Below are positions 27,005 to 37,526 of a stretch of DNA of 64,000 nucleotides, one piece after another (position 1 is the stretch's first letter; the number at the start of each line of letters is the position of its first letter). Made by a program: the position numbers and the translations under genes. The DNA comes from Epilithonimonas sp. JDS (GTDB taxonomy: Bacteria; Bacteroidota; Bacteroidia; Flavobacteriales; Weeksellaceae), in assembly GCF_021261315.1 (NCBI RefSeq), contig NZ_JAJSAX010000004.1:124001-188000 (forward strand). Reading direction: 5' to 3'. A model generated the notes under the pieces. That model had not been told where the DNA came from, searched no databases, and saw nothing but the letters and a program-made list of their open reading frames with translations.

Positions 27005-27994
27005 ATGAATTATTTGGGATCGAAAGTTAGATTATCAGGTTTTATCTTTGAGCAAATAAAGAATTCGGTAAATGAAAGGCTTGGTGATCTAAGCTTCTGC
27101 GATTTATTTGCAGGAACAGGCGTTGTTGGAAATTTTTTCCATACAAAAGTAAAAAGTGTTTTGTTCAATGACAGAGAATATTATAGTTACATAGTCAACA
27201 AAGCATTTTACAGTAAAGTAAATGGACACAGATATCTGTCAATGTTGGAAGAACTCAATCAATTGAAAGGTATAGAGGGGTTTATTTTTGAAGAATATTC
27301 CGAGTATGGTTCAGCAGGAAGGTTGTATTTTAATGAGAGCAACGGAAAGAAAATTGATGCAATAAGAACTCGGATCGAATATTTATATTCAAGTTCTCAA
27401 ATTGATAAGGATTTCTATTATCTGTTATTAGCTACTTTACTTTTAGCCGTTGATAAGGTTGCCAATACTGCATCAGTATATTGCGCTTATTTGAAAAAGC
27501 TCAAGAAAACAGCAACATATAAAGTTAAAATGATTCCCATTCAAAGAGCTTTGAAGCCTGTTGAAAATACAATATTCAATGAGGATAGCAGTGTTTTGAT
27601 CAAGAAAATAAAAGGAGATATACTATACTTAGATCCTCCTTATAATGGTAGAGAATACAGTTCCTACTATCACTTATTAAATACAATTGCTTTATATGAT
27701 ACAAATTTTATCCCAAGAGGTAAGGCAGGATTAAGATTCTACGAAACATCAAATTTCTGTTTAAAGAAAGAGGCAGAGAATAGCTTACTTCAAATACTTA
27801 CAGATTCAAATTTTAAATATATTTTTCTAAGCTATAATAATGAAGGCTTTGTTAAGCCTTCAAGGATTACAGAGATGATGTCAAGTTTAGGGGAATATGC
27901 TTGTTCTTATGTAAAATATCCTAAGTTTAAGAGTTGTAAAACGAATTCAAAGCAATACACAGAAGAGTATTTACATTGTTTAATTAAAGATTAA
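27005..27994 (+). CDS. D12-class N6-adenine DNA methyltransferase, orphan
   Basis: A 329-residue enzyme with the order of D12 (alpha-class, Dam-like) methylases: YLGSK at 3-7, the AdoMet-binding FAGTG (35-39), and the catalytic DPPY (210-213) in ILYLDPPYNGREYSS. It should methylate adenine in a short DNA site. No restriction endonuclease lies beside it. It follows the tra operon terminator and probably protects the ICE from host restriction or marks its DNA. It is more AT-rich than the tra genes, which suggests separate acquisition. Confidence 0.85.
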   Translation: MNYLGSKVRLSGFIFEQIKNSVNERLGDLSFCDLFAGTGVVGNFFHTKVKSVLFNDREYYSYIVNKAFYSKVNGHRYLSMLEELNQLKGIEGFIFEEYSEYGSAGRLYFNESNGKKIDAIRTRIEYLYSSSQIDKDFYYLLLATLLLAVDKVANTASVYCAYLKKLKKTATYKVKMIPIQRALKPVENTIFNEDSSVLIKKIKGDILYLDPPYNGREYSSYYHLLNTIALYDTNFIPRGKAGLRFYETSNFCLKKEAENSLLQILTDSNFKYIFLSYNNEGFVKPSRITEMMSSLGEYACSYVKYPKFKSCKTNSKQYTEEYLHCLIKD

Positions 27995-28258: not shown

Positions 28259-29056
28259 TTAGTCAATTTTCAGCGGATGAGTATTAAAGTCTTTAAGATT
28301 ATGAAAGAATCCTCGGTAGGGTGTCAAACCATATCTAAATAGATTCCATAGCAGACTGCAACCCATCTGTGCCAATGAGGAGTTAATAAATAAATCCTGT
28401 TTTTCAAGTGCTTCAGCCACAGAACAGCTTGGTGTATCATCATTCTGTTCTGATTGTTTCAGTAAATCTCCGAACTCATCTGTAATAAAAGGAAGATTTT
28501 CAACAGTTATATATTTTTCCGAATTCGGCTGTCTGACTATGCCTATCGTAGAAAGTATAGCTTGTCCTCTGTCTTTGGTATTGCCGAAGTCCAGCCAATA
28601 TTTAAGATTTGAATTATGATGTCTTTTGTGTTTGAGAATATCGGCAATTTCAAAACGTGCCGATACGCTATCAACACAGGAGATATAGATATTCGCTTCC
28701 ACATTTTCGGGATAGTGATTTTCTCTTTCCCAATCAAATTTTTTGGTTTCTGCTTTCCAATTAGTCCCCATCCAACGATTACAACGGTTTATCAATGCAA
28801 CGGATTTATACAGTCCTTTCTCAGATTCTGCAAATCTCTGTCTTCCTAAGTTGGCTGATGTAATAATATCATCATCCCAAAGGCGAACCTGCAGACCAGG
28901 ATGTTCCATTTCGTTTAAGCTGTGATTCATTTCCATGAGTGCAGTCAATACTTTTGAACCTGTACCGCCTGCTCCGATAACATTCACAGTTACTGGGTTT
29001 GTGGGGTTTATCAAATGATTATCAGTAAAATGAACTTTTGTTTTTTCAGTTGTCAT
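28259..29056 (-). CDS. PRTRC-system ThiF/E1-like ubiquitin-activating-type enzyme
   Basis: A 265-residue Rossmann-fold E1-like protein. Visible motifs: GAGGTGS (28-34) for nucleotide binding; WDDDIITSANLGRQRF (60-75), the E1 D..N.RQ adenylation motif; the Lys of GLYKS (84); SCVDSVSARF (127-135); and NDDTPSCSVAEAL with Cys211 as the candidate catalytic cysteine. No CxxC zinc pairs are present. Family knowledge: E1-like enzymes adenylate the C-terminal Gly of a ubiquitin-like protein and take it up as a thioester. The start overlaps the PRTRC B stop (ATGA). The probable partner is PRTRC C, three genes upstream. Confidence 0.88.
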   Translation of the reverse strand: MTTEKTKVHFTDNHLINPTNPVTVNVIGAGGTGSKVLTALMEMNHSLNEMEHPGLQVRLWDDDIITSANLGRQRFAESEKGLYKSVALINRCNRWMGTNWKAETKKFDWERENHYPENVEANIYISCVDSVSARFEIADILKHKRHHNSNLKYWLDFGNTKDRGQAILSTIGIVRQPNSEKYITVENLPFITDEFGDLLKQSEQNDDTPSCSVAEALEKQDLFINSSLAQMGCSLLWNLFRYGLTPYRGFFHNLKDFNTHPLKID

Positions 29057-29790
29057 GTCAGTAAGTCTTTAAGGGTTTTGTTTGATTTTTTCAAGACATT
29101 TTTTGGAAATGAATTTTCTGTGTTAATCAGTTCTTTCCATAAAGTGACACAATTTCCTTTGATGGGATTGTGCCCATTCATCAAATGGCTGAAATAACTG
29201 TTAAAAAAATAGTCCTCCCAAGCTTTTGTAAATTCTTCTACAGAGATGGAACTTTTAATGTTGACATCTACAGTTCCCATGCAAACATTTCCGTTGTCAT
29301 ACACATTAAAAAATGGTGCGTGATACAACTTGGTCTTTTCCGTCGGTCTTCTGTCAGAAGTTAAAGCAAACAAGATTAAGCCCTGCTTGTTGGCAAACCA
29401 TAGTAAGGCAGGAATTTCCGCTTGACCATTAGCAATTTCTAAATTTTCAGAGAAGAACAGGCTTTGTTTATGGCTTTTGCTGTACCAAATAACAGAACCG
29501 TTCGCACTTGGGTTAATATGCAGTATATTTTCTGTAATAACGGTTTGAGGTTTTAAAAACTCTTTGCTTTTTATCGTTTCAACAGAAAGAGCTTTTGATA
29601 AGTATTTTGCTTCATTCAGAGTCAAAGGGTGAGCATTGATTGGATTTCCACTGCTATCCATATCAAAATGTTCTACATAAGTTTCTCTGTCTCTTTCAGA
29701 AGATTGATAAAAAACTAAGGCTGATACGGGGTTATAAAGCACTCCAAAATCTTTTGTAATATTTTCCATTGGTTTAGGTTTAAAGGTCAT
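29053..29790 (-). CDS. PRTRC protein B, E2-like (ubiquitin-conjugation fold)
   Basis: A 245-residue protein matching PRTRC system protein B (Pfam name Prok-E2_D, from memory). The segment HAPFFNVYDNGNVC (157-170) has the H..N....G..C order of E2 conjugating enzymes, so Cys170 is the likely thioester residue and His157 and Asn162 the supporting ones. The N-terminal half is beta-rich and more variable. ATG 29790 overlaps the upstream gene by 11 nt; an alternative ATG is at 29769. The stop is coupled to ThiF. Its biological target is unknown. Confidence 0.85.
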   Translation of the reverse strand: MTFKPKPMENITKDFGVLYNPVSALVFYQSSERDRETYVEHFDMDSSGNPINAHPLTLNEAKYLSKALSVETIKSKEFLKPQTVITENILHINPSANGSVIWYSKSHKQSLFFSENLEIANGQAEIPALLWFANKQGLILFALTSDRRPTEKTKLYHAPFFNVYDNGNVCMGTVDVNIKSSISVEEFTKAWEDYFFNSYFSHLMNGHNPIKGNCVTLWKELINTENSFPKNVLKKSNKTLKDLLT

Positions 29791-30946
29791 TCATTAGGTC
29801 AATCAATTCTTCAATCAGATTAAATATCTGATGTTCAAAGTCCAGATTACTTTCACTTATGTTTGAATCAGTAAAATATTTAATGACGGCAGGTTCTTCA
29901 ATCTGCCCGTATTCCTGCAGTTCATTATTGACACTTTGAAAAAGCATATTAAATAAAGCACCTTTTGCTTCGGCACAGAATGAAATGTACTTGTCCATTG
30001 TAACGGTGTTTTCTTCTTGCTCCTCTTCATCATATTCATTGAAGATGATTTTTGATTGAGCATTTTTCATGATGTTTGAGTTGGGAAACTGTATAAATAA
30101 ATTGTAAGCGTTCTGCGCCAACATCAAACAGTTTTCATCTAATTCATCTTGGGCTGTAAACTGCTTTAATCTTAATTTAAAATGTTCCAAGTTCTGAACA
30201 CTGAATATTTTCTTTTCAATGATGTCGCCTATCCATTCTGCATGTTTTAGTTCTAATAAAAGATTGATATTTTCTTCATCTTCATCATCTTCATTTGCCC
30301 ATTGTTCAAACATTTCATACATCCAATAGAGATAACTAACTTCCTGTCTGTAATATGGGATATCAACAATATGATACAAGTAGCTGTAAACAGACAGCAG
30401 AAGACGAAAAGCTTTATTGTACTTTTTGATTTTGGATAACCTGTAAAGCGGAATTACGGGAATGTAGTAAAGCGTTGCACCTGTATTGTACCGTTCTTCA
30501 CTTGTGAAATAAACCTTTCCTTTGTCCTGTATCAGCTGAATTTCTTCCCAATCTCTTACTTTGGTCTTGAGCTGATTCTGTACATTTTGAATTTCTAAAG
30601 CAATATTATAGGGAAATTCAAAATTTTCAAACTGTTCTGAATTAAGCTGATAATGTTCTTTGAGATAGGAAAGGGACTGATAAAAATCCCTTTCGAATCT
30701 TTTAGACTTTCTACAAGCCTGTCTATTTTCAGTTTCCTGTAATTTGGGAAGAAATGAACACTTTAATAAAGCATTGGAACCATTGCTATCGGTACAGATT
30801 TCCGTTGGTCTTTTCTGATTTCGTTGGCATCTTTTGGGCGGTTCATCCATTGTGCGAACTCGGCTAACTGCCTGTGCAGTTGTTTCTGTTTGGTCTGCTG
30901 TGGGACTTTGATAGTTCCCGAAATGATATTGCGTTGCATAGGTCAT
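29780..30946 (-). CDS. Large protein in the PRTRC F position, unknown function
   Basis: A 388-residue ORF between PRTRC C and PRTRC B, where other PRTRC cassettes carry protein F, so it may be a divergent F; I cannot confirm this by motif. The first 90 residues are polar, of low complexity and possibly disordered (several Cys, Gln, Thr), and the real start may be further in. The remainder is soluble and helical, Tyr- and Leu-rich, with acidic patches (ANEDDEDEENI near 220 and EYDEEEQEENT near 310). It overlaps protein B by 11 nt. Confidence 0.6.
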   Translation of the reverse strand: MTYATQYHFGNYQSPTADQTETTAQAVSRVRTMDEPPKRCQRNQKRPTEICTDSNGSNALLKCSFLPKLQETENRQACRKSKRFERDFYQSLSYLKEHYQLNSEQFENFEFPYNIALEIQNVQNQLKTKVRDWEEIQLIQDKGKVYFTSEERYNTGATLYYIPVIPLYRLSKIKKYNKAFRLLLSVYSYLYHIVDIPYYRQEVSYLYWMYEMFEQWANEDDEDEENINLLLELKHAEWIGDIIEKKIFSVQNLEHFKLRLKQFTAQDELDENCLMLAQNAYNLFIQFPNSNIMKNAQSKIIFNEYDEEEQEENTVTMDKYISFCAEAKGALFNMLFQSVNNELQEYGQIEEPAVIKYFTDSNISESNLDFEHQIFNLIEELIDLMNDL

Positions 30947-30962
30947 AATCTTGTCTTAAAGG

Positions 30963-31181
30963 TTATCCTTTTGTACCCATAACACTTTCAAAGGTGTATT
31001 GTAAAGTATCATCACGAATTACAGGCACAGATACTTTTGCAGTAGTTAGAATGGGGTAGGTATTGGCGTAAAAATTCATTACTGTTTCTACACTCCATTT
31101 AGGTTCGGGGTCGCTGAGTTTTATCTCCTGTCCTTTGTCAATAATAACAAAGACTCTTTCTAATTCTGTTGCGAGTAACAT
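30963..31181 (-). CDS. PRTRC protein C, ubiquitin-like protein ending in Gly
   Basis: A 72-residue protein matching PRTRC system protein C, grouped by Pfam with prokaryotic ubiquitin-like proteins (Prok_Ub, from memory). The core is SDPEPKWSVETVMNFYANTYP, a beta-grasp helix region, and the protein ends MGTKG with Gly72 as the last residue. That free C-terminal Gly is what an E1 needs, so no maturing protease would be required. It lies in one operon with E1-like ThiF and E2-like protein B. Confidence 0.85.
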   Translation of the reverse strand: MLLATELERVFVIIDKGQEIKLSDPEPKWSVETVMNFYANTYPILTTAKVSVPVIRDDTLQYTFESVMGTKG

Positions 31182-31198
31182 AGATTTAATTTTTGAGG

Positions 31199-31717
31199 TT
31201 ATGAGGTAAATAAATTAGGGGCAAATTCTTTTTCGTAAATCTCCTGTTTTTCCAAAATCTCTTTAGAATATTCGGGATAGTCAGAGGCTTTAGGCAATGC
31301 CGACCATGCATCCTTAAATTTTGAATCATTTTCAAGTTCCTCCGCTTTTTTCATCGCATCTCTATATTTTTTATCCCTTTCGTCTTTGGCTTTCTTTTCT
31401 TTGTCAGCATTTTGCTTTTCCATTGCAGAATGTTTTTTGGCTTCTTCCAATTGCACCATAAAAGAATCCATGTTAACCATTAAGTAAGAAGCGGACTGAA
31501 TGGGTTGGGTAATATTTTCAAAAAAACCATTGTCCAAATCTTCAGAAGTGCCACGCAGATTTAAAGGCGGGATTCTGTTTTTAGCTTCGTCTCCGCATTG
31601 GCTGTTGAGCAGTAATACAGAAACAATCCAATTATTGTCTGTTGCTTTCTGAATCGATATATTTAAATTGCCTGTAAACTCTATTTGGTTGATCAGGCTG
31701 AAAAAATTAGTCTTCAT
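31199..31717 (-). CDS. PRTRC protein E
   Basis: A 172-residue protein matching PRTRC system protein E: an N-terminal folded part with NRIPPLNLRGTSEDLDNGFF (about 46-65), the family hallmark, then a Lys/Glu/Ala-rich coiled coil (about 90-135) and a short tail. Its role is unknown. It overlaps the upstream small ORF by 11 nt and precedes protein C by 17 bp. Confidence 0.82.
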   Translation of the reverse strand: MKTNFFSLINQIEFTGNLNISIQKATDNNWIVSVLLLNSQCGDEAKNRIPPLNLRGTSEDLDNGFFENITQPIQSASYLMVNMDSFMVQLEEAKKHSAMEKQNADKEKKAKDERDKKYRDAMKKAEELENDSKFKDAWSALPKASDYPEYSKEILEKQEIYEKEFAPNLFTS

Positions 31718-34064: not shown

Positions 34065-34739
34065 ATGCAGATTGGTTCTTTTAACGATTACTATGATAAG
34101 CTGACCACTATTGAGAAAAAAAACAGTCCCAAAGAAATATTTTATAAGGGGGACTTTTCTTTGTTGGAAAATGGTAGGAGAGTAGCAGTTGTTGGTTCTC
34201 GTAAGGTTTCAGATCTTGGCGTAAGAAGAGCTAGAAAGATTGCTAAATTATTAGTGCAAAATGATATAACTGTAGTAAGCGGTTTAGCTGAAGGTATTGA
34301 TACTATAGCGCATAAAACGGCAATTGAATCCCAAGGACATACCATTGGTGTTATAGGAACTCCTATTGATAAATATTTTCCGGCTGAGAACAAGCAGTTA
34401 CAGGATTTTATTGCTGAAAATCATTTGCTGATTTCTCAGTTTTCTGAAAATTATCCAGTAACTCCAAAAAGTTTCCCGATCAGAAATAGAACCATGGCAT
34501 TGATAAGTGATGCAACGATCATTGTTGAGGCCAGTGAAAAAAGCGGTACAAAACATCAGGGATGGGAAGCGCTAAGATTGGGAAGGCAGCTTCTTATTAT
34601 GGAAAATGTTCTCAATCAAAAAGTTTCATGGGCAGAAGAAATGCTAAGTTATGGTGCACAGGTTTTGACCAACGACAACTTTGAATTTCTAATTGAAAGC
34701 ATTCCTTTTTTAACCACAAAAAAAGAGTATGTCTTTTGA
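34065..34739 (+). CDS. DprA/SLOG-family Rossmann protein
   Basis: 224 residues containing only the central DprA (Smf) Rossmann domain: VAVVGSRKVSDLG (about 40-52), VVSGLAEGIDTIAHK (about 70-84), GVIGTPIDKYFP and FPIRNRTMALISDATIIVEA. It lacks the N-terminal SAM-like and C-terminal winged-helix domains of full DprA (about 360 residues). DprA binds single-stranded DNA and loads RecA; other SLOG proteins bind nucleotides. The next gene overlaps it by 11 nt. Its location beside ssb suits handling of entering DNA; a defence role is the alternative. Confidence 0.85.
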   Translation: MQIGSFNDYYDKLTTIEKKNSPKEIFYKGDFSLLENGRRVAVVGSRKVSDLGVRRARKIAKLLVQNDITVVSGLAEGIDTIAHKTAIESQGHTIGVIGTPIDKYFPAENKQLQDFIAENHLLISQFSENYPVTPKSFPIRNRTMALISDATIIVEASEKSGTKHQGWEALRLGRQLLIMENVLNQKVSWAEEMLSYGAQVLTNDNFEFLIESIPFLTTKKEYVF

Positions 34740-35337
34740 GTTTCTTACCTTTCTGGCCTATTCTCCAAGAGGTAAGTCTGAGATTGAAATTAATTCACGC
34801 ACAGTTGCCGGTTCTTGTAAAAATGGAGATGTCAGCTTCAGTACAAGATTAAGCCAAAGAATAGAAGAATCAGATTTATCAGAATATTTTGCAAACTCAT
34901 CCTTAGTTCCTGTTCCAAGAAGTACTCCTCTTGTAGACGGAGCTGTTTTTCCAGCAAAAGTAATTTGTGAAACACTGGTCAAAAATGGATTAGGTGAAAG
35001 TGTTACTGTTTGTGTTGATCGTGCATATGCTATTCCTAAATCAAGCGGGCAGTTTCATGCCGACACAAGAAATACAGTTCAAACTCATCAAGATAGCTTA
35101 ATCATAAGACCTGTTATTATCACCGAACCAACGATTATCTTGGTTGATGATATTCTGACATTAGGTCGCACATCTATGGCTGTTGCTCTTGAACTTCAAA
35201 AGATTTATCCGGAAAAAGAGATCAAAATTTTCTGTGCGATAAGAACAAGAGGCTGGAAGAATTTAGAAAATATTATAGATGTCAGTAGAGGCCATATGAG
35301 CCTTACAGCCAATGGCGGCGTTCAGTTACCGGACTAG
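34729..35337 (+). CDS. ComF-like phosphoribosyltransferase-fold protein
   Basis: 202 residues. LVPVPRSTPLVDGAVFPAKV (about 59-78) resembles the VPVP motif of ComFC. IILVDDILTLGRTSMAVALEL (136-156, shown as IILVDDILTLGRTS) is the PRPP-binding loop of type I phosphoribosyltransferases, and RNTVQTHQDSL fits the ComF R.N...A region. The N-terminus has no zinc finger. ComFC and DprA both act on single-stranded DNA in natural competence, and here their relatives form an overlapping gene pair. The substrate and product are unknown. Confidence 0.8.
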   Translation: MSFEFLTFLAYSPRGKSEIEINSRTVAGSCKNGDVSFSTRLSQRIEESDLSEYFANSSLVPVPRSTPLVDGAVFPAKVICETLVKNGLGESVTVCVDRAYAIPKSSGQFHADTRNTVQTHQDSLIIRPVIITEPTIILVDDILTLGRTSMAVALELQKIYPEKEIKIFCAIRTRGWKNLENIIDVSRGHMSLTANGGVQLPD

Positions 35338-35924: not shown

Positions 35925-37487
35925 ATGGTTATTGCAGATCTTTATATAAGAGTATCTACCGATGAACAGGCCGAAAAAGGTTATTCACAAAGAGATCAGG
36001 ATGAAAGGTTAAGAAAATATTGTGCTAATAACAATATAGCTATCAATAGAGTGATTTTTGAAGATCATTCAGCAAAAAGCTTTAATCGCCCTGAGTGGAA
36101 AAAATATCTTCTTGAAATAAGAAAGAAAAGTCACAAAAGCAACTTAGTTCTATTTACCAAGTGGGACAGATTCAGTCGTAATACTGCAGATGCTTATCAA
36201 ATGATAAGTTTGCTGCATAAAAATCACATCATCCCTCAGTCTATCGAGCAGCCATTGGATATGTCTGTTCCTGAAAACAAGCTTATGCTTGCGATTTATC
36301 TCTCCACTCCGGAGGTAGAAAATGACAGAAGGGCACTCAACACGTTTCACGGTATGCGGAGAGCAAAAAAAGAAGGCAGGCTGATGGGAATTGCTCCCTA
36401 TGGATATATCAACAGAAGCCATGAAGACGGTAAAAAGTATATTGCCATCAAAGAGCCGGAAGGATCTAATATAGCTTGGGCATTTAAAGAGGTTGCAAAA
36501 GGGCATATTCCGGCAGATCATGTAAGATTGCAGATGAATAAAAGGGAGGGTGCTTCAATGTCAAGAAGTGCGTTTGCAAAAGCTATGAGAAACCCGGTTT
36601 ACTGTGGTAAAATATATATTGAGGATTATAAACAGGAAGAAGCATATTACAGTGATGGAAAACATGAGCCACTGATTAGCGAACGACTGTTTAGTCAGGT
36701 GCAGCAGATTATGGACAAAAAAAGGAAGGTAGAAGGGCCAGGCGGAAGAGTATTAGGTAATGAACGTTTTCCATTACGTGGACTTTTACGTTGTCCAAGG
36801 TGTGGCAAAAATCTTACGGCAAGCGGGGCTAAAGGAAAGTCTAAAACCTATTACTATTATCATTGCCATTATAAATGCGGATTTCGTTTTGATTCAGACA
36901 GATTGAACCAACTCTTTGAATTGGAAATTTCCAAATTTGAATACAATCCTATCATAAAAGATTTGATGAAAGATATACTTTTAGATAACTACAAACAATT
37001 CACCTTTGATATAGATGCAAAGAGAAAGTCCATATTAAAAGAGATTAATGAGCTTAATGAAAAAGTAGCGAATGCAAGAGATAAATATCTTGCTGATAAG
37101 TTAGATGAAGAAGATTACAAAGAGGTGAAGAAAATAACAAAAGAACAAATTGAACAGTTGGAACAAGAGATCCAACATATTGTTTCAGAGAGTAAAGAAC
37201 TTGATATAAAAACAAAAATAGAAAATGCTCTCGACTCAATGGAAAACCTGGCAAACCTTTATCAGCAGGGCGATTTACAGACAAAAAGAACTATAGGGTG
37301 TTTGATATTTCCTCAAAAAGTCGAATTTGACGGAAAAAGTTTTCAAACACCTAAAATGAATATTGTCGCTCAATGTATCTATCAGTATAACAACGGATTA
37401 GGAAATAAAAAAAACCGACATAAGAGAAAAAAATCTACAAATGTCGGTCTTGTGACCTCGACAGGATTCAAACCTGTAACCTTCTGA
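35925..37487 (+). CDS. Large serine recombinase (ICE integrase)
   Basis: 520 residues. The resolvase catalytic domain starts ADLYIRVSTDEQ with Ser11 as the nucleophile; other catalytic-domain blocks are FTKWDRFSRN and NDRRALNTFHGMRRAKKEG. A recombinase domain (about 160-280), a zinc ribbon (CPRCGKN ... CHYKCG, about 290-330) and a coiled coil (about 370-430) follow. This is the standard large serine integrase layout. The last 12 residues (VGLVTSTGFKPVTF region) are encoded by the 3' half of the tRNA-Arg gene on the opposite strand, so the stop codon is supplied by the target site. It integrates and, with a directionality factor, excises the ICE. Confidence 0.92.
   Translation: MVIADLYIRVSTDEQAEKGYSQRDQDERLRKYCANNNIAINRVIFEDHSAKSFNRPEWKKYLLEIRKKSHKSNLVLFTKWDRFSRNTADAYQMISLLHKNHIIPQSIEQPLDMSVPENKLMLAIYLSTPEVENDRRALNTFHGMRRAKKEGRLMGIAPYGYINRSHEDGKKYIAIKEPEGSNIAWAFKEVAKGHIPADHVRLQMNKREGASMSRSAFAKAMRNPVYCGKIYIEDYKQEEAYYSDGKHEPLISERLFSQVQQIMDKKRKVEGPGGRVLGNERFPLRGLLRCPRCGKNLTASGAKGKSKTYYYYHCHYKCGFRFDSDRLNQLFELEISKFEYNPIIKDLMKDILLDNYKQFTFDIDAKRKSILKEINELNEKVANARDKYLADKLDEEDYKEVKKITKEQIEQLEQEIQHIVSESKELDIKTKIENALDSMENLANLYQQGDLQTKRTIGCLIFPQKVEFDGKSFQTPKMNIVAQCIYQYNNGLGNKKNRHKRKKSTNVGLVTSTGFKPVTF
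37414..37448 (-). terminator. Terminator of tRNA-Arg
   Basis: ACCGACAT (37414-37421) and ATGTCGGT (37441-37448) pair around a 19-nt loop. Read on the minus strand the hairpin follows the tRNA 3' end by 4 nt and is followed by a run of Ts. It lies inside the last codons of the recombinase gene. Confidence 0.6.
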
Positions 37488-37526
37488 GCCGTAATCAGAT
37501 GCGCTATTCAGTTGCGCCACGAGGCC
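37453..37526 (-). tRNA. tRNA-Arg (anticodon ACG), ICE attachment site
   Basis: Read on the minus strand: acceptor GGCCTCG/CGAGGTC, D stem GCGC/GCGC, anticodon stem TCTGA/TCAGA with loop TTACGGC (anticodon ACG, Arg CGU), and T arm ACAGG-TTTGAAT-CCTGT. All stems pair, with one G-U in the acceptor. CCA is not encoded. Its 3' 35 nt overlap the end of the recombinase gene, marking the right junction of the element. Confidence 0.93.

What the first reader, a model, noticed from the sequence alone, without database searches (positions are those of the whole stretch)
28259..31717. Minimal ubiquitin-like conjugation cassette (PRTRC E-C-F?-B-ThiF) on an ICE
Seen: a 72-residue protein ending in a bare Gly (MGTKG), a protein with E2-like HAPFFNVYDNGNVC, and a ThiF/E1 protein with GAGGTGS, D..N.RQ and a candidate catalytic Cys211, all in one overlapping operon. 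Known: Pfam places PRTRC C and B with prokaryotic ubiquitin-like and E2-like families (from memory); PRTRC is a named cassette without a proven role. Inference: the trio forms a working Ub-E1-E2 relay that modifies a target during ICE transfer or against a rival. The cassette has no JAB peptidase and no ParB, which other PRTRC sets carry; the Ub-like protein needs no maturation since its Gly is already terminal.
Basis: partly seen in the sequence, partly recalled or inferred. Interest (0 to 1): 0.9.

Follow-up and report, generated by a model that had tools for sequence, protein, structure and literature searches.

The report
Bacterial ubiquitin-like tagging gene cassette
A set of five genes on a self-transferring piece of bacterial DNA very likely attaches a small ubiquitin-like protein to other proteins; the kind was predicted in 2006 and is common, but this branch lacks the usual removing enzyme.

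Summary
Window 28259-31717 (minus strand) encodes PRTRC E, C (ubiquitin-like), an unnamed alpha-helical protein, B (E2-like) and ThiF (E1-like). It is not a new kind: Iyer et al. 2006 (PMC1779556) described it as operon type 6d and listed B. theta. Of 296 genomes of the window's family, 93 carry PRTRC ThiF above cut-off.

The B model's 50 listed structural neighbours are all E2 entries, but at low Z.

Added here: JAB and ParB were found in none of 81 loci with the Bacteroidota-type helical gene. An extension after the C glycine occurs only where JAB is present: 57 of 77 loci with JAB, 0 of 91 without. All 8 extension changes on the tree fall on JAB-bearing branches (P = 0.0006), though strictly independent pairs are too few for a sign test. 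So the glycine is probably the working end of a conjugated protein, made ready in this branch. Target and role are unknown. A complete cassette also sits in Burkholderia phage BgVeeders33.

The parts
31199..31717 (-). PRTRC system protein E, 172 aa, function unknown
   Evidence: PF19556 E=6e-68, TIGR03741; found in 55 of 60 related loci; median dN/dS 0.10 over 8 pairs
30963..31181 (-). PRTRC system protein C, 72-aa ubiquitin-like protein ending in a bare Gly (GTKG-stop)
   Evidence: PF14454 E=6e-26, TIGR03738; Gly72 in 57 of 57 rows of the same phylum incl. window, 153 of 154 non-redundant rows over all phyla; median dN/dS 0.07 over 10 pairs
29780..30946 (-). Unnamed alpha-helical protein, 388 aa, in the position of PRTRC F
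   Evidence: No Pfam/NCBIfam match; AlphaFold model mean pLDDT 76.7, residues 75-388 mostly helical; no convincing fold match; no significant profile match to proteobacterial F; fastest-evolving of the five, median dN/dS 0.23 over 10 pairs
29053..29790 (-). PRTRC system protein B, E2-like, candidate catalytic Cys170, with Asn162 and His202
   Evidence: PF14460 E=4e-37, TIGR03737; Cys170 175/176, Asn162 176/176, His202 174/176; model pLDDT 90, all 50 listed neighbours E2 entries, best Z 5.0
28259..29056 (-). PRTRC ThiF family protein, E1-like, candidate catalytic Cys211
   Evidence: TIGR03736 E=4e-69, PF00899 E=6e-10; Cys211, Asp61, Asn69, Arg72, Gln73, Lys84, Asp129 each 180/180; profile matches UBA6, UBA5, NEDD8 E1 and ThiF structures

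Best explanation
The cassette is the JAB-less, ParB-less Bacteroidota branch of the PRTRC / type 6d ubiquitin-like conjugation systems, carried by a conjugative element. Most likely ThiF adenylates the terminal Gly72 of C, takes it as a thioester on Cys211, hands it to Cys170 of B, and B transfers it to an amino group of one or more target proteins. Because Gly72 is already terminal no processing is needed, and because no JAB is present the mark is probably not removed by the cassette itself. E and the fast-evolving helical protein are the best candidates for target recognition or for being targets. Shown: gene content, order, purifying selection, residue conservation, and the JAB/extension pattern. 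Inferred: each chemical step, irreversibility, the roles of E and F. Unknown: the target. I think the target most likely serves the mobile element (its DNA handling or a host function it must override), because the cassette rides on ICEs, plasmids and phages, often beside SSB, DUF932 or ParB genes.
For: Curated models for Ub-like, E2-like and E1-like members all score above cut-off. Six adenylation-site residues and Cys211 are 180/180 and Cys170 175/176 in non-redundant sequences of several phyla, including B and ThiF only 20-30% identical to the window's. B has the spacing N-x7-C with G-x-V-C that I recall from canonical E2s (HPN...C); Asn162 is 176/176. B model: pLDDT 90, all 50 listed structure rows are E2 entries. 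Extension after the C glycine occurs in 57 of 77 JAB-bearing loci and 0 of 91 JAB-less ones; all 8 parsimony changes of the extension lie on branches scored JAB-bearing, 39.5% of tree length, P = 0.0006. PRTRC_A is DUF2016 plus Prok-JAB in 5 of 5 scanned, with the JAMM motif in 78 of 79. All five genes are under purifying selection (median dN/dS 0.07-0.23). Gene order is conserved. SSB in 53 of 60 and DUF932 in 35 of 60 loci.
Against: No biochemistry exists here. Foldseek alone gave no match at E <= 0.001 for B, and the E2 rows reach only Z 5.0, a level the tool warns can be a common arrangement. B and C have no relative of known structure by sequence. The fold of C was not predicted. The JAB/extension link rests on few independent changes: JAB changes 5 times; strictly independent pairs that differ in JAB number 1 on supported branches (5 on all), and of 5 supported pairs that differ in extension JAB differs in 1 and is the same in 4, so no sign test can reach significance. 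Three of the 8 extension changes share a branch with a JAB change. 20 of 77 JAB-bearing loci have a bare C-terminus, so JAB must do something else there. Pelobacter C ends in Ala, not Gly. The His of the recalled HPN motif is absent from B.
Confidence: 0.7

Rival explanations
1. C is a sulphur or cofactor carrier like ThiS or MoaD: ThiF makes its thiocarboxylate and B is a partner enzyme, with no protein tagging.
For: ThiF and MoeB are among the solved relatives of the ThiF protein; the C glycine is also what a sulphur carrier would need.
Against: No sulphur-transfer or biosynthetic gene stood out among the 25 most recurrent ORF clusters of the 60 loci; eight representatives of recurring clusters were scanned and gave DUF1281, HTH, primase-like, integrase and response-regulator matches or none, so this is a partial check. 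B keeps an E2-like Cys/Asn/His set in nearly all of 176 sequences. The window ThiF lacks the CxxC zinc pairs recalled from ThiF/MoeB (read from the sequence). Systems elsewhere carry a JAB and an extended C.
Confidence: 0.1
2. The proteins form a non-catalytic or DNA-partition complex for element maintenance, and catalysis is vestigial.
For: One paper files PRTRC as a partition system on plasmids (PMC7466150 passages); ParB lies in 53 of 74 loci with the proteobacterial-type F; SSB neighbours in 53 of 60 loci.
Against: Catalytic residues are kept in 175 of 176 B and 180 of 180 ThiF and C is the slowest-evolving of the five genes, which loss of catalysis would not predict. Maintenance as the purpose of conjugation is not excluded.
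Confidence: 0.1
3. The cassette conjugates C, but as an anti-phage or anti-rival weapon (in the manner of CBASS type II or Bil), rather than for the element's own transfer or upkeep.
For: Other bacterial Ub-like systems are tied to immunity (PMC10097602, search listing; PMC13373217, passages, which names Bil as an anti-phage pathway but says Bub operons have not been shown to protect a host).
Against: PADLOC finds only weak E1-E2 similarity for ThiF (E 0.002-0.008), one weak restriction-enzyme match for B (0.017) and nothing for C, E or F; no effector gene was recognised among the recurrent neighbours looked at (not all were annotated); the cassette is itself carried by a phage.
Confidence: 0.2

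Closest known systems
Operon type 6d of Iyer, Burroughs and Aravind 2006 (PMC1779556)
   Same: Small Ub-like protein with conserved C-terminal Gly, fast-diverging alpha-helical protein, E2-like protein with conserved Cys and a downstream His, E1-like protein; B. thetaiotaomicron is listed.
   Different: The paper states that a JAB peptidase is fused or always immediately adjacent; none was found in this branch (0 of 81 loci).
PRTRC cassette of NCBIfam, proteobacterial form ParB-E-C-F-B-A-ThiF
   Same: E, C, B and ThiF score above the PRTRC model cut-offs; gene order identical where shared.
   Different: No A (JAB), no ParB; the helical protein has no significant profile match to proteobacterial F; C has no extension in the JAB-less loci.
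Bub operons, Bil systems and type II CBASS
   Same: Bacterial E1/E2-based conjugation pathways (PMC13373217 passages; details of Bub and Bil recalled, the Bub papers are not held).
   Different: Here E1 and E2 are separate proteins, no JAB and no cyclase is in the cassette, and PADLOC gives only weak matches.

Membership tests
PRTRC cassette (NCBIfam) | E, C, B and ThiF score above PRTRC model cut-offs | tested here: met
   TIGR03741 38.2 vs 37.95; TIGR03738 57.4 vs 45.95; TIGR03737 134.2 vs 131.45; TIGR03736 232.5 vs 144.75 bits
PRTRC cassette (NCBIfam) | PRTRC A (JAB) present | tested here: not met
   TIGR03735: 0 in the own genome and 0 of 40 genomes of the phylum that carry PRTRC ThiF; control plasmids 3 of 4 positive, the fourth without an annotated A
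PRTRC cassette (NCBIfam) | PRTRC ParB present | tested here: not met
   None among the ten window proteins scanned around the cassette; 0 of 81 loci with Bacteroidota-type F
PRTRC cassette (NCBIfam) | PRTRC F homologue | tested here: inconclusive
   No NCBIfam match; hhalign to proteobacterial F 1.7% probability over 69 columns; same position and helical make-up
Operon type 6d (Iyer 2006) | Ub-like protein with C-terminal Gly, helical protein, E2-like with Cys and downstream His, E1-like | tested here: met
Operon type 6d (Iyer 2006) | JAB adjacent or fused to E1 | tested here: not met
   elsewhere A = DUF2016 + Prok-JAB, fitting the JAB-N + JAB of the paper
E2 / UBC superfamily | Conserved catalytic Cys with preceding Asn | tested here: met
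   Cys170 175/176 (the exception, L112, has a Cys two residues on), Asn162 176/176
E2 / UBC superfamily | UBC fold | tested here: inconclusive
   All 50 listed entries are E2s but best Z 5.0; Foldseek E > 0.001
E2 / UBC superfamily | His of the HPN motif (recalled) | tested here: not met
   Phe at that place in the window; conserved His202 downstream, 174/176, as described for 6d
E1 / ThiF superfamily | ThiF family match and ATP-site residues | tested here: met
   PF00899 above cut-off; six residues 180/180, glycines 28, 30, 31, 33 in 177-179 of 180
E1 / ThiF superfamily | Thioester on Cys211 | not testable with these tools
   Conservation only, 180/180
Ubiquitin-like proteins | Beta-grasp fold | not tested
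   Both folding jobs went to B and F; only the Pfam Prok_Ub match is in hand
Type II CBASS E1-E2 | Fused E1-E2 protein | tested here: not met
   Separate proteins; weak PADLOC matches only

The most novel reading that the evidence does not exclude
A widespread branch of bacterial ubiquitin-like systems on Bacteroidota ICEs has dispensed with its removing peptidase and makes a ready-to-use tag, so it marks targets one way only; ICEs, plasmids and phages share this machinery to override a host function on entering a cell.
Probability: 0.3. Interest if true: 0.8.

Novelty: new variant of a known kind. Interest (0 to 1): 0.5.

Why it matters
PRTRC / 6d systems have been predicted since 2006; in the held library I found no biochemical test of one (searches; most listed papers seen as listing only). 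The JAB/extension pattern gives a simple, testable reason to believe the tag is really used through its C-terminal glycine, and identifies two natural versions to compare: precursor plus peptidase, and ready-made tag without peptidase. The Bacteroidota version may need only three small proteins to reconstitute in a tube.

Tried and rejected
Searches with no result: sequence searches of solved structures with the C protein, the C profile and the B profile gave nothing usable, nor did the single ThiF protein, while its profile did. F gave no convincing fold (best Z 3.5, PhoU-like helical bundle); hhalign of the two F types was not significant. An apparent B-E homology in ORF clustering showed up through one deleted locus, L091, in the seven examples printed of 94, and was dropped. 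The phylogeny-blind contrast of JAB and extension was not accepted alone; treekit's independent pairs could not reach significance, so the event-placement test is given with that limit; it uses a FastTree tree, midpoint rooting and one parsimony reconstruction.

Direct repeats marking the left end of the ICE were sought in the window and not found; the 22-base tRNA end occurs at two places in the genome, the other on a different contig. PMC4838322 matched 'PRTRC' only through the plasmid name pRtrCIAT899c; other Rhizobium tropici papers were not opened.

Rows dropped: C with identical last 72 residues were counted once. In one search loci lacking C, with B under 180 aa or ThiF under 200 aa were dropped, leaving 180, and 168 after removing rows identical in B and ThiF ends. 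In one search, 4 of 180 B and 5 of 185 ThiF rows were too short. In one search pairs with dS of 1.5 or more were left out of the medians; the ten pairs were chosen by me. JAB absence was scored within the fetched locus, backed by whole-genome or record searches in 40 genomes of the phylum and 12 other records, several of them partial and without a positive control in the same call. L093 was counted as JAB-less but JAB-bearing, because its A gene lies across the record start. The window is not among the 81 loci; 24 further loci there have neither F type (A in 12, ParB in 12), and the Bacteroidota ones among them that I recognise (L037, L063, L096, L150) have no A or ParB. An earlier count said 155 C sequences; the correct count is 154.
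Full report
What is there. The window carries, on the minus strand, five consecutive genes: E (31199-31717), C (30963-31181), an unnamed 388-aa protein (29780-30946), B (29053-29790) and ThiF (28259-29056). C matches Prok_Ub, B matches Prokaryotic E2 family D, ThiF matches the ThiF family and E matches PRTRC_E, all above Pfam cut-offs; the PRTRC models of NCBIfam agree for all four; the 388-aa protein matches nothing up to E = 1. Spacing is 17 nt (E/C), 16 nt (C/F), 11-nt overlap (F/B) and 4-nt overlap (B/ThiF), so only the last two pairs overlap.

Where it sits. The element has a coupling protein, MobA-type relaxase, TraG P-loop, TraM and DUF4138 proteins (DUF4138 as TraN is recalled). A serine recombinase ORF at 35925-37487 overlaps a tRNA-Arg at 37452-37526, a plausible right end of the ICE. 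The left end was not found in the window. That the window's organism belongs to Bacteroidota is inferred from named relatives of the cassette and from the Tra families.

How common it is. PRTRC ThiF scores above its cut-off in 93 of 296 genomes of the same family and in 16 of 395 genomes sampled from the phylum. In the plasmid collection 365 records have a ThiF match at E <= 1e-5. Of 60 related loci fetched from the phylum, ThiF was found in 60, B in 59, C in 56, E in 55, the 388-aa protein in 55, SSB in 53, DUF932 in 35 and the window's neighbouring DNA methyltransferase in 1.

It is a known kind. Iyer et al. 2006 (PMC1779556; passages, section 14 in full) describe operon type 6d: a small Ub-like protein with conserved terminal Gly, a largely alpha-helical protein, an E2-like protein with a conserved Cys and a downstream His, an E1-like protein, and a JAB with an N-terminal domain. 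Their species list includes B. thetaiotaomicron and an entry 'Ppro', which I read as Pelobacter propionicus. The Pelobacter plasmid pPRO1 carries annotated PRTRC ParB, E, C, a hypothetical protein, B, ThiF and, across the record start, A. PRTRC A is DUF2016 plus Prok-JAB in 5 of 5 scanned, fitting their JAB-N plus JAB. In B. theta, BT2645 is annotated PRTRC E, BT2647 hypothetical, BT2648-49 E2 family D and ThiF; conjugative-transposon Tra genes are at BT2596-98 (PMC10434189, passages).

Within the phylum, Gly72 is the last residue in 57 of 57 rows, Cys170 is present in 60 of 60 and Cys211 in 60 of 61, where a 93-aa fragment is among the rows. Across all loci, the terminal position is Gly in 153 of 154 non-redundant C, Ala in Pelobacter. 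Cys170 is kept in 175 of 176 B proteins; the exception, L112, has a Cys two residues further on. Asn162 is kept in 176 of 176 and His202 in 174 of 176. In ThiF, Cys211, Asp61, Asn69, Arg72, Gln73, Lys84 and Asp129 are each 180 of 180. The N-x7-C spacing and G-x-V-C of B match the HPN...C motif of E2 enzymes as I recall it; the His of HPN is replaced by Phe.

Structure. The AlphaFold model of B has mean pLDDT 90.2. Foldseek alone found nothing at E <= 0.001. The second aligner, over 982 chains, put E2 enzymes in all 50 listed rows (identity read from titles and chain lengths), best Z 5.0 with 102 residues aligned. That is supportive but of a level the tool calls common. The model of the 388-aa protein has a low-confidence first 76 residues and a mostly helical remainder, with no convincing match. 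The ThiF profile matches UBA6, UBA5, NEDD8 and ubiquitin E1s, ThiF and MoeB.

The JAB-less branch. In 81 non-redundant loci with the Bacteroidota type of F, E is found in 80, C in 81, B in 81, A in 0 and ParB in 0; in 74 loci with the proteobacterial type, A in 67 and ParB in 53; in 24 with neither type, A in 12 and ParB in 12. PRTRC_A has no match in 40 of 40 genomes of the phylum that carry PRTRC ThiF, while the same search finds it in 3 of 4 plasmids, the fourth having no annotated A. The own genome has no Prok-JAB above cut-off.

The JAB/extension pattern. In many systems C continues after the conserved KG glycine, by 1 to about 100 residues. Counting 168 loci with complete B and ThiF: JAB present, 57 of 77 extended; JAB absent, 0 of 91 extended. 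On a B+ThiF tree the extension changes 8 times and JAB 5 times. All 8 extension changes lie on branches scored JAB-bearing, which hold 39.5% of the tree length; random placement gives this with P = 0.0006; three of the eight share a branch with a JAB change. Against this, treekit's strictly independent pairs that differ in JAB number 1 on supported branches (5 on all), and of 5 supported pairs that differ in extension JAB differs in 1, so significance cannot be reached that way. JAB has the JAMM motif in 78 of 79 sequences, the other being a 98-aa fragment. In the 20 JAB-bearing loci with bare C, JAB presumably removes tags.

Selection. Median dN/dS over 8 to 10 pairs is 0.07 for C, 0.10 for ThiF, 0.10 for E, 0.12 for B and 0.23 for the 388-aa protein. 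All behave as functional genes; the last evolves fastest, as a target-facing part might.

Phages. ThiF relatives lie at 46 loci on 45 IMG/VR contigs; one of these contigs is also a bacterial genome contig (L208 and L145), so not all need be viral. 30 of these loci hold E, C, F, B, A and ThiF, and L190 has a phage-type integrase near by. In the annotated phage collection the complete cassette is in Burkholderia phage BgVeeders33 (25952-30438), with C, E2, JAB, E1 and E confirmed by Pfam and F by position only; it is annotated as hypothetical proteins except for ThiF. So the cassette travels on ICEs, plasmids and at least one isolated phage.

Conclusion. The cassette is an ordinary member of a widespread, long-predicted family for which I found no biochemical test in the library searched; the lineage-wide lack of JAB and the JAB/extension pattern are what this work adds.

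Noticed in passing
L234 (OK665841.1, phage BgVeeders33) 25952-30438: A complete E-C-F-B-A-ThiF cassette on an isolated phage, annotated as hypothetical proteins apart from ThiF; its C carries a C-terminal extension and its A is DUF2016 + JAB; F by position only.
   Followed up: partly
L188-L233: 46 loci on 45 IMG/VR contigs encode PRTRC-like ThiF, 30 with the full E, C, F, B, A, ThiF set; L190 has the cassette about 1.7 kb from a Phage_integrase ORF on the other strand, as at a prophage end.
   Followed up: partly
L093 6864-7067: Pelobacter C ends GTKA: the only one of 154 non-redundant C whose terminal position is not Gly.
   Followed up: no
window 27005-27994: D12-class adenine DNA methyltransferase convergent with the cassette; a relative was found in only 1 of 60 related loci.
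   Followed up: no
window 34065-35337: A DprA-family protein followed by a protein with weak phosphoribosyltransferase similarity (below Pfam cut-off), overlapping genes, on the ICE upstream of the recombinase.
   Followed up: partly
window 37452-37526: tRNA-Arg (acg) overlaps the 3' end of the serine recombinase ORF, marking the likely right end of the ICE.
   Followed up: partly
L091, L052, L063, L037: Incomplete cassettes that look decayed; L091 has an ORF that looks like the start of E joined to part of B.
   Followed up: no
L097 8222-9738: Deinococcus plasmid with B and ThiF only: no C, E or F was found nearby, and the His202 position of B is Lys.
   Followed up: no
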